A DNA stretch of 64,000 nt, taken from positions 2,790,001 to 2,854,000 of the forward strand of contig NZ_CP054585.1 in assembly GCF_003721435.2 (NCBI RefSeq). The letters run 5' to 3'. The translations under genes and the position numbers were made by a program. Below the pieces are notes generated by a model. The model was not told the origin of the DNA and did no database searches. It saw only the letters and a program-made list of their open reading frames with translations. This DNA comes from Halorubrum sp. CBA1229. Lineage in GTDB: Archaea > Halobacteriota > Halobacteria > Halobacteriales > Haloferacaceae. This document shows, one piece after another, positions 10,541-58,518 of this stretch; position 1 is the first letter of the stretch; the number at the start of each line of letters is the position of its first letter.

Positions 10541-10548
10541 TTATAAAC
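10541..10548 (-). promoter_or_regulatory. TATA box of tbp
   Basis: The minus strand reads gtttataa 29-36 bp before the ATG at 10512. A second weaker AT box (acatataaaa, 10520-10529) lies too close to the ATG to be the main box. Confidence 0.5.
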
Positions 10549-10944
10549 GCCCGTGGTATAAACGACCACTCGCTCGCGGCGTGTTTCGGTACGCGCGTTT
10601 CGCATCTTTCTTCGCTCGCGTAGCACAGCTTCTCCGCCCCCGTCTCTACTCGCACCCAGCTCTCCTCTGCATCCGTCTTCACTCAGTTCATCCTCTCCGC
10701 TCATCTCGTATTCTCGTACGCACGCGATGATATCCGACGTTCGGTACTTGCGGGGCCGAATCTCCTTCGTGATTCGGTTGCCGTTTTCTCGGCTCATTCA
10801 GTGACAACTTTCGTATGTCTTTGCCCGGATCGGGGTTGCCCACTCGCCCGAACGGTCTTTCGTCGAGGGCGTCACGAGCGCTCTTCGCTCGCGACTCCCC
10901 GTGGCAACCGTTCACCAAGAAACCGCATGACGTGGCGGCGATAG
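10549..10944. other. Intergenic DNA between tbp and the rRNA promoters
   Basis: About 400 bp separate the tbp promoter from the first rRNA promoter. Short open frames exist on both strands but lack haloarchaeal composition (Cys/Arg-rich, few acidic residues) and clear promoters. I see no supported gene here. Confidence 0.5.
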
Positions 10945-50097: not shown

Positions 50098-50420
50098 CAT
50101 TTATAAATAGAACGGCAGTGGCGCGTGCCTCTGAGTGGCCGGTAGGCCACGAGGAGCACCGCGCGAGGGAGTCGCTGGCGCCCACGGCGCCAGCGACGAG
50201 GCTGGGGAGGTGTGAGGTGCAGTTGCGGTGCTGTGCGGGGCGGGACTCAAAGGGGCAGCGGCGAGGACGACGCACGGCGCAGTAAGCACTACAGGGAGCG
50301 AGCGTAGCGAGCGACCGAAGCGCGCAGCAAGCCGCGCGAGTCCTCGCCGCTGGGGCTTTGAAGTGGTTAACCGCCGATCCAGTCTCATCCGCTTATAAAT
50401 GAGCGGCTGGGGCTTTGGAG
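50098..50420 (-). repeat. Structured non-coding element, copy A (possible ncRNA)
   Basis: The gap 50088-50527 holds no protein gene. Read on the minus strand it contains a TATA-like box and GGATCGGCGGTTAAC (50373-50400), then AAAGCCC. An 11-bp stem follows, CAGCGGCGAGG (50342-50352) with CCTCGCCGCTG (50256-50266). Next come CCCCTTTGAGTCCC, CCTCACACCTCCCCAGCCTC, a perfect 12-bp hairpin (50171-50197), and a closing TTATAAAT box at 50098. The same order recurs in copy B in the opposite orientation. Paired changes in the 11-bp stem support a real structure. Whether it is transcribed is unknown. Confidence 0.65.
50171..50197. other. Perfect 12-bp hairpin in element A
   Basis: GTCGCTGGCGCC and GGCGCCAGCGAC around a 3-base loop, at the place where copy B has a different hairpin (58288-58322). 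Confidence 0.85.
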
Positions 50421-50527
50421 GTCAATTTTACGTCACAGACAGTAACGATCTACAGCCGAGCGGCTATTCGTTTATAAACAGTGCCTGCGGAATCGTCAAC
50501 GACACATAAAACAGCAACCGATCTACT

Positions 50528-57896: not shown

Positions 57897-58110
57897 CGGG
57901 AGCGCGTCGGCGAACCGTCCGCCCGTTTATAAGTGGTTGATGCTGGATCGGTGGTGAACGTCTCCGAAGCCCCAGCCCCTCGCTTATAAATGAACGATAG
58001 CAGATCGACCGCAGATTCCGCCAAAGCCCTAATCGGTCGGCGATACGGCGACTCCGCAGTGAAGGCCTCCAAAGCCCCAGCCGTGAGGACTCGCGTGACT
58101 CGCTGTCGTT

Positions 58111-58133
58111 CGAAAGGCGCGGAGCGCCTTTCG
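58111..58133. other. Hairpin in element B
   Basis: CGAAAGGCGC and GCGCCTTTCG around the 3-base loop gga; perfect 10-bp stem inside the long stem loop. Confidence 0.8.
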
Positions 58134-58139
58134 TGATGA

Positions 58140-58160
58140 CGAGAGAGCTTCGCTCTCTCG
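58140..58160. other. Hairpin in element B
   Basis: CGAGAGAGC and GCTCTCTCG around ttc; perfect 9-bp stem. Confidence 0.8.
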
Positions 58161-58287
58161 AACCACGCTCCTCGACCGCTCACTCCGTTCGCGGTCTGCG
58201 GTGCTTGCGTCGTCAGGCGTCGCCCTCACGGCTGCCCCTTTGAGTCCCACCCGAACCGCGACCGCAGCCTCACACCTCCCCAGCCTC

Positions 58288-58322
58288 GTCGGCCGGCCTC
58301 CGCTTCGCTTCGGCCGGCCGAC
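58288..58322. other. Hairpin in element B
   Basis: GTCGGCCGGCC with GGCCGGCCGAC, a perfect 11-bp stem, at the position of the 12-bp hairpin of copy A. Confidence 0.8.
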
Positions 58323-58328
58323 TCCAGC

Positions 58329-58347
58329 GAGGGACCTTCGGTCCCTC
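58329..58347. other. Hairpin in element B
   Basis: GAGGGACC and GGTCCCTC around ttc; perfect 8-bp stem. No counterpart is apparent in copy A. Confidence 0.8.
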
Positions 58348-58352
58348 TGGCA

Positions 58353-58371
58353 GCCGGCGCTGTGCGCCGGC
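58353..58371. other. Hairpin in element B
   Basis: GCCGGCGC and GCGCCGGC around tgt; perfect 8-bp stem. Confidence 0.8.
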
Positions 58372-58390
58372 GACCTCGCGCGTGCTACTC

Positions 58391-58407
58391 GCGGGCCAGA
58401 GGCCCGC
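58391..58407. other. Hairpin in element B
   Basis: GCGGGCC and GGCCCGC around aga; perfect 7-bp stem. Confidence 0.75.
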
Positions 58408-58518
58408 TCGCAGGCACGCGCCAACCGCCTCGTTCATTTATAAATAGTCGTCGCCGGCTCATTCGAAGTTAAGTACTGCACCGCTTCGGGCGGCCCGCAC
58501 TAACTACCCCGGTCGCGC

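What the first reader, a model, noticed from the sequence alone, without database searches (positions are those of the whole stretch)
50098..50420. Two copies of a structured non-coding element with compensatory base changes
Copy A (minus strand, 50420 to 50098) and copy B (plus strand, 57922-58447) share the same order of conserved blocks: GGATCGG.GGT.AAC, AAAGCCCCAGC, GAGGACTCGCG, CTGCCCCTTTGAGTCCC, CCTCACACCTCCCCAGCCTC and GGCACGCGCCA, ending at TTATAAAT. Between blocks the sequences differ. The stem CAGCGGCGAGG/CCTCGCCGCTG in A is CAGCCGTGAGG/CCTCACGGCTG in B. Two base pairs changed on both sides (G-C to C-G and C-G to T-A), so pairing is kept. Outside it, CAAAG/CTTTG can also pair around a symmetric CCC/CCC internal loop. 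This is the mark of selection on structure and is not explained by any gene here.
Basis: seen in the sequence. Interest (0 to 1): 0.88.

Follow-up and report, generated by a model that had tools for sequence, protein, structure and literature searches.

The report
Haloarchaea-wide dispersed hairpin repeat family
The two copies belong to a large undescribed family of folding DNA repeats, about 100 per genome in this salt-loving archaeon and present in most haloarchaea, whose paired stems change together; it most likely behaves like the mobile intergenic hairpin repeats (REP/BIME) of bacteria.

Summary
Copies A and B share the listed blocks, and the 11-bp stem differs by two compensated pairs. 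They are 2 of about 97 intergenic copies in this genome. Copies occur in 52/52 genomes of the genus (Halorubrum). A covariance model of the central 119-nt hairpin finds it in 101/116 genomes of the class, but in none of 101 sampled genomes from the rest of the phylum.
The fold is very strongly supported: 97-99% of cells paired, hundreds of double-sided changes. Two readings change.
(1) The structured strand is the opposite one (plus for A, minus for B): G.U-type mismatches exceed A.C-type 65 to 12, and loops are purine-rich.
(2) Covariation is not simply in-place compensatory selection: between positional orthologues 40 pairs changed on both sides against 9 on one, and 9 of 11 cores are closest to a copy at another locus. 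Hairpins are exchanged as modules.
Both window copies are absent at the orthologous sites of a relative with ~91% identical flanks. Other genera carry inverted pairs, as in BIMEs.
Best reading: a non-autonomous, REP/BIME-like palindromic element that folds on one strand. It is not a REP proper (too long, no tag, Y1 transposase does not track copy number). No Rfam match; no paper found.

The parts
50099..50108 (+). copy A: palindromic AT-box ATTTATAAAT at the 5' side (structured-strand reading)
   Evidence: present 5' of the first hairpin in 67 extracted own copies, with variable spacing (mostly 14-22 nt) to GGTGGCGCG
50119..50157 (+). copy A: GTGGCGCGYGCC block and hairpin a (GTGGCC..GGCCAC)
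50171..50197 (+). copy A: hairpin b (GTCGCTGGCGCC..GGCGCCAGCGAC); stem replaced wholesale between copies
   Evidence: 53 distinct 5' arms among 170 copies with >=8/10 complementary
50198..50217 (+). copy A: conserved unpaired linker GAGGCTGGGGAGGTGTGAGG
   Evidence: about 88 sites with at most 2 mismatches in the genome
50242..50360 (+). copy A: core hairpin c, 119 nt, 129 bits with model R1
50349..50479 (+). copy A: 57-bp repeat units (CTGGGGCTTTG...TTTATAA) at the 3' side; first unit 50349-50405, second partial and degenerate
   Evidence: 1-5 units per copy, 57-bp period
58436..58445 (-). copy B: AT-box ATTTATAAAT
58391..58429 (-). copy B: GGCGCGTGCC block and hairpin a (GCGGGCC..GGCCCGC)
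58288..58374 (-). copy B: hairpin b (GTCGGCCGGCC..GGCCGGCCGAC) plus two extra small hairpins (GAGGGACC/GGTCCCTC and GCCGGCGC/GCGCCGGC)
58268..58287 (-). copy B: conserved linker (GAGGCTGGGGAGGTGTGAGG)
58070..58248 (-). copy B: core hairpin c, 75 bits, with a 68-nt insertion in the tip
58108..58163 (-). copy B: three-way-junction module GTTCG[stem]CGTCATCACG[stem]CGAAC; conserved junction, variable paired stems; also in a distant genus (L358)
57926..58069 (-). copy B: degenerate 57-bp-type units at the 3' side

Best explanation
This is a class-wide haloarchaeal family of interspersed, intergenic palindromic elements that works like the REP/BIME repeats of bacteria. SHOWN: the unit is a 119-nt irregular hairpin with a conserved foot (GGGACT[C/G]AAAGGGGC ... 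GGGGCTTT[G/C]). In Halorubrum it is embedded in a larger ~260-nt array of three hairpins with conserved linkers and 57-bp terminal repeats; in other genera it is alone or in inverted pairs. About 100 copies sit between genes on the Halorubrum chromosome. Sites are gained or lost between species, and whole hairpins are exchanged between copies. The pairing is kept on one particular strand. INFERRED: the element is non-autonomous and is copied into new intergenic sites when that strand folds (as single-stranded DNA or as a transcript) and its foot is recognised by a factor supplied in trans. Ectopic gene conversion among copies then keeps overwriting them, which spreads intact hairpins as modules. 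Any host role (RNA 3' ends, supercoiling, termination) is secondary.
For: Copy number: 97 model hits in the genome, 96 on the main chromosome. Genus: 52/52 genomes. Class: 101/116 genomes and 39/45 genera. Negative control: every phylum match is in the class; none in the 101 sampled genomes outside it. Pairing: 99.1% of cells in 68 own copies, 97.4% in 59 copies of other genera; 265 and 383 double-sided cells vs 64 and 110 in shuffles. The closing pair is C-G in Halorubrum and G-C in other genera. Strand: G.U vs A.C mismatches 65:12 by a strand-neutral count, also 27:6 and 29:14; unpaired bases are 73-75% purine, 4-5% U. Turnover: against G009, 15 of 23 mapped sites shared and 8 without core, both window copies among the 8, with no model hit in that G009 stretch. 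Exchange. Inverted pairs 28-37 bp apart in several other genera. Context: 31 convergent, 50 tandem, 14 divergent of 95, with no preferred transcriptional direction. Non-coding: spacer lengths spread over all three residues modulo 3.
Against: No insertion event with clean ends or a target duplication was seen; at ~9% divergence the intergenic flanks are too different to align, and one site (L023) could equally be a deletion in the relative. No mobilising protein was found, and Y1 transposase (PF01797) does not track copy number. Near-absence from the second replicon (1 of 97, p=6e-4) and no hit in viral contigs for a strict two-motif pattern argue for slow movement. Conservation of unpaired blocks and junctions across genera is more than a purely passive repeat needs.
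Confidence: 0.58

Rival explanations
1. A multi-copy functional non-coding RNA family: each copy is transcribed from the TTTATAAA box, folds, and acts in trans or by binding a protein. Covariation reflects selection on RNA structure.
For: Strand bias of G.U and sheared G.A mismatches; purine-rich loops; conserved linkers and three-way-junction nucleotides with variable stems in distant genera; near-universal in the class.
Against: The spacing of the AT-box to the first hairpin is variable. G.U pairs are only about 1.5-2% of cells. Copies come and go and are overwritten. About 3% have the hairpin interior inverted. 15 of 116 genomes lack a detected copy. No Rfam match at curated thresholds.
Confidence: 0.22
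2. The paired arms stay complementary through DNA-level template switching (quasi-palindrome correction) plus gene conversion, without selection on any folded molecule; covariation is a mutational by-product.
For: Double-sided changes outnumber one-sided 40:9 between positional orthologues; G.U intermediates are rare; inverted hairpin interiors are what template switching across a palindrome would leave.
Against: It does not explain the strand asymmetry (65:12), the conserved unpaired blocks, or spread to ~100 sites. Module exchange between copies already explains most double-sided changes.
Confidence: 0.12
3. Cis-acting transcription terminators or 3'-end insulators for neighbouring genes, spread by duplication.
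For: 31 of 95 in convergent intergenic regions against 20% of spacers (p=0.0026); both window copies lie between convergent genes.
Against: Most copies are not in convergent regions; there is no consistent orientation to the upstream gene; no T-run follows the hairpin; convergent regions are also where insertions do least harm.
Confidence: 0.08

Closest known systems
REP elements, BIMEs and REPINs of bacteria (with RAYT/TnpA-REP transposases)
   Same: High copy number, intergenic, palindromic, conserved foot beside the stem, inverted pairs with a short spacer in several genera, strand-specific hairpin, compensatory arm changes.
   Different: 119-nt hairpin instead of 20-40 bp; no GTAG or CGTC tag; class-wide in archaea; Y1 transposase does not track copy number; in Halorubrum a three-hairpin array with 57-bp terminal repeats.
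MITEs, including the palindrome-associated elements known from other haloarchaea (the latter from own knowledge)
   Same: Small, non-coding, dispersed; inverted pairs have outer inverted ends GAAAGCCCC/GGGGCTTTC.
   Different: Single hairpins lack symmetric ends; no target duplication seen; almost absent from the second replicon.
Large structured ncRNA families in Rfam
   Same: Helices with covariation, conserved unpaired blocks, conserved three-way junction with variable stems.
   Different: No match to any of 4227 Rfam families at curated thresholds; about 100 copies per genome with turnover.
Class I intergenic repeats of halovirus HF2 (58 bp, promoters; PMC8707807)
   Same: Period near 57-58 bp with an AT-rich box, in a Halorubrum virus.
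   Different: The motifs the paper gives (CTTTAAGT and others) differ; no similarity found in the phage collection.

Membership tests
REP/BIME (bacterial repetitive extragenic palindromes) | many copies per genome, intergenic | tested here: met
   97 model hits; the copies sit between predicted genes
REP/BIME (bacterial repetitive extragenic palindromes) | short (20-40 bp) palindrome | tested here: not met
   core hairpin is 119 model positions; size definition from PMC3733652
REP/BIME (bacterial repetitive extragenic palindromes) | GTAG or CGTC tag at the foot | tested here: not met
   foot is GGGACT[C/G]AAAGGGGC
REP/BIME (bacterial repetitive extragenic palindromes) | pairs in alternating orientation with short spacer (BIME) | tested here: met
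   divergent pairs 28-37 bp apart in several non-Halorubrum genera; not seen in this form in Halorubrum
REP/BIME (bacterial repetitive extragenic palindromes) | co-occurrence with a REP-associated Y1 transposase | tested here: not met
   G015, G001 and G130 have many copies and no Y1 match over threshold; G063, G111, G103 and G097 have Y1 and no copies detected
Known Rfam ncRNA family | covariance-model score at or above the gathering threshold | tested here: not met
   only rRNA and tRNA in the window
MITE | terminal inverted repeats and target-site duplication | tested here: inconclusive
   inverted pairs have outer inverted ends; empty sites too diverged to see duplications
Functional ncRNA gene family | discrete stable transcript | not testable with these tools
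Protein-coding repeat | conserved reading frame | tested here: not met
   linker lengths spread over all residues modulo 3 in 253 copies

The most novel reading that the evidence does not exclude
An undescribed, near-universal haloarchaeal structured RNA (or single-stranded nucleic acid) family whose modular hairpins are swapped among about 100 genomic copies. It would be either a new class of RNA/ssDNA-folded mobile element with an unknown, non-Y1 mobilising machinery, or a multi-copy ncRNA with a conserved three-way junction.
Probability: 0.3. Interest if true: 0.85.

Novelty: new variant of a known kind. Interest (0 to 1): 0.62.

Why it matters
Haloarchaeal genomes carry a large, class-wide repeat family that no Rfam model covers and that no paper in the library searched describes. 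It offers a natural test of how long palindromes spread and keep their arms matched in archaea, since hundreds of natural stem variants exist. It is also a caution: covariation among repeats within a genome can come from exchange of whole hairpins, so it should be tested on positional orthologues before it is read as selection on RNA structure.

Tried and rejected
Coding repeat: rejected, no frame is kept. Known RNA family: no Rfam match. Relationship to the 58-bp promoter repeats of halovirus HF2: no similarity in the phage collection. Virus-borne element: no exact match for a strict two-motif pattern in viral contigs. Y1/IS200-type mobilisation: copy number and Y1 presence do not go together. 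Terminator-only role: convergent excess is modest and orientation is not constrained. The 5' AT-box as a precise promoter: spacing to the element is too variable. Empty-site analysis for target duplications: failed because flanks at ~91% identity have unalignable spacers. Literature searches for haloarchaeal palindromic repeats or multi-copy sRNAs gave nothing on this family. Chromosome-position orientation bias (46:22 below 2.05 Mb vs 8:16 above, p=0.004) is post hoc and was not tied to replication origins.

Full report
WHAT IS THERE. BLAST of either copy against the same genome returns dozens of further loci. A conserved 16-base block recurs about 88 times with at most two mismatches. A covariance model of the central hairpin gives 97 hits at E<=0.001, 96 on the main chromosome and one weak hit on the second contig. 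Rfam has nothing for it.

ANATOMY. Read on the structured strand (plus for A, minus for B), a Halorubrum copy is: an ATTTATAAAT box; GGTGGCGCGYGCC; hairpin a; GCGAGGGA; hairpin b; a conserved purine linker GAGGCTGGGGAGGYGTGAGG; then GGGACTCAAAGGGGCAG, a long irregular hairpin c, and CTGGGGCTTTGGAGG; then one to five tandem 57-bp units that repeat the CTGGGGCTTTG block and carry their own TTATAA. Copy B has an additional branched insertion in the tip of hairpin c. Its junction sequence, GTTCG[stem]CGTCATCACG[stem]CGAAC, recurs with different but paired stems in other copies and in a different family of the order (L358).

DISTRIBUTION. All 52 genomes of the genus have it. A capped pattern scan returned 120 stretches; those listed come from named Halorubrum species plus one uncultured-archaeon MAG. 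By BLAST, weaker relatives appear across the class. These share the core GGGACTGAAAGGGGC[stem]...[stem']GGGGCTTTC. With the covariance model R1, 101 of 116 sampled class genomes have at least one match, in 39 of 45 genera. In a sample of 120 genomes of the phylum, all 17 positives are members of the class; the 101 genomes from outside it are negative, so the model is specific. Per-genome counts outside Halorubrum were 8-41 in the twelve genomes examined. There the hairpins often occur as divergent pairs about 30 bp apart, the arrangement known as BIME in bacteria.

STRUCTURE AND STRAND. In 68 own copies 99.1% of cells are paired and 19 of 28 pairs have double-sided changes (265 cells; shuffles 64 +/- 8). 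In 59 copies from other genera the figures are 97.4%, 25 of 28 pairs and 383 cells (shuffles 110 +/- 11). Sliding the partner by one to three columns drops pairing to 24-49%. These alignments were fitted to the model. The independent string comparison of the outer stem in 81 own copies gives 845 of 891 complementary cells against 743 +/- 6 shuffled. The outermost pair is C-G in Halorubrum and G-C elsewhere. Mismatches are strand-asymmetric: G.U-type 65 against A.C-type 12 by a strand-neutral count over about 250 copies. These counts are of copies, not independent events, so they are strong but not formal.

EVOLUTION. I compared the genome with G009, whose flanking coding sequence is about 91% identical, over 0.8 Mb. 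Of 23 own copies with both flanks mapped, 15 are shared and 8 lack the core. A and B are among the 8, and the model finds nothing in that stretch of G009. Shared copies are either nearly identical or very different (core identity 69-100%). Over 11 positional orthologues, 40 pairs differ on both sides with pairing kept, 6 differ on one side with pairing kept, and 3 are broken. Nine of the eleven cores have a closer relative at another locus, in the same genome or another species. Whole hairpins are visibly replaced at fixed sites. About 3% of copies have the interior of hairpin c inverted. So the striking double-sided changes between paralogues are largely intact modules being exchanged, not sequential compensatory mutation in place. 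Some process must still have generated and filtered the variants, and the strand asymmetry says that a folded single strand matters.

CONTEXT. All 95 classifiable copies are intergenic: 31 convergent, 50 tandem, 14 divergent, against 154/462/154 spacers in the background. The convergent excess is significant but modest (p=0.0026). There is no preferred direction relative to neighbouring genes. The flanking genes at A and B are ordinary. The gene calls come from a simple codon model of my own and are approximate.

MECHANISM. Shown: dispersal, site turnover, exchange of modules, strand-specific folding signal, conserved foot, inverted pairs in other genera. Inferred: non-autonomous propagation in which a factor in trans recognises the folded strand at its foot, followed by ectopic gene conversion. 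The obvious candidate, a Y1 (IS200/RAYT-type) transposase, does not track copy number, so the factor is unknown; a factor lost from present genomes is possible.

COMPARISON. It works like REP/BIME elements but fails three of their defining features (size, tag, Y1 association), so I do not file it as a REP. Papers on REPs give no haloarchaeal example. No paper describing this family was found, but the library holds only openly licensed papers, so novelty is provisional.

Noticed in passing
L135, L191, L207, L263, L265, L268, L269, L271: Hairpin c with its interior inverted between unchanged arms, in 8 of 288 extracted cores.
   Followed up: partly
58108-58163 (window copy B); L042, L045, L046, L051, L097, L170, L174, L240, L358: A three-way-junction module with conserved junction nucleotides and freely variable paired stems, shared between Halorubrum and a different family of the order.
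   Followed up: partly
58329-58371; L013, L095, L324: A small double-hairpin insertion with a conserved CTKGCA-type linker inside hairpin b; it looks like a second, smaller repeat family nested in the first.
   Followed up: no
G000 contig C1, 97 hits: Orientation of the structured strand is 46:22 below 2.05 Mb and 8:16 above (p=0.004, cut chosen after looking); could reflect replication direction.
   Followed up: partly
L005 and L009 against G009: Two cores are 99-100% identical between species whose coding flanks differ by about 8-9%, suggesting recent homogenisation or transfer.
   Followed up: partly
50349-50479 and 57926-58069: 57-bp tandem units with TTTATAA and a near-palindromic GGTGTTCACC; 1-5 per copy, rarely found without the hairpin array.
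   Followed up: partly
window 10545-10651 (-): Weak model hit (18 bits) just upstream of the rRNA operon; probably chance.
   Followed up: no
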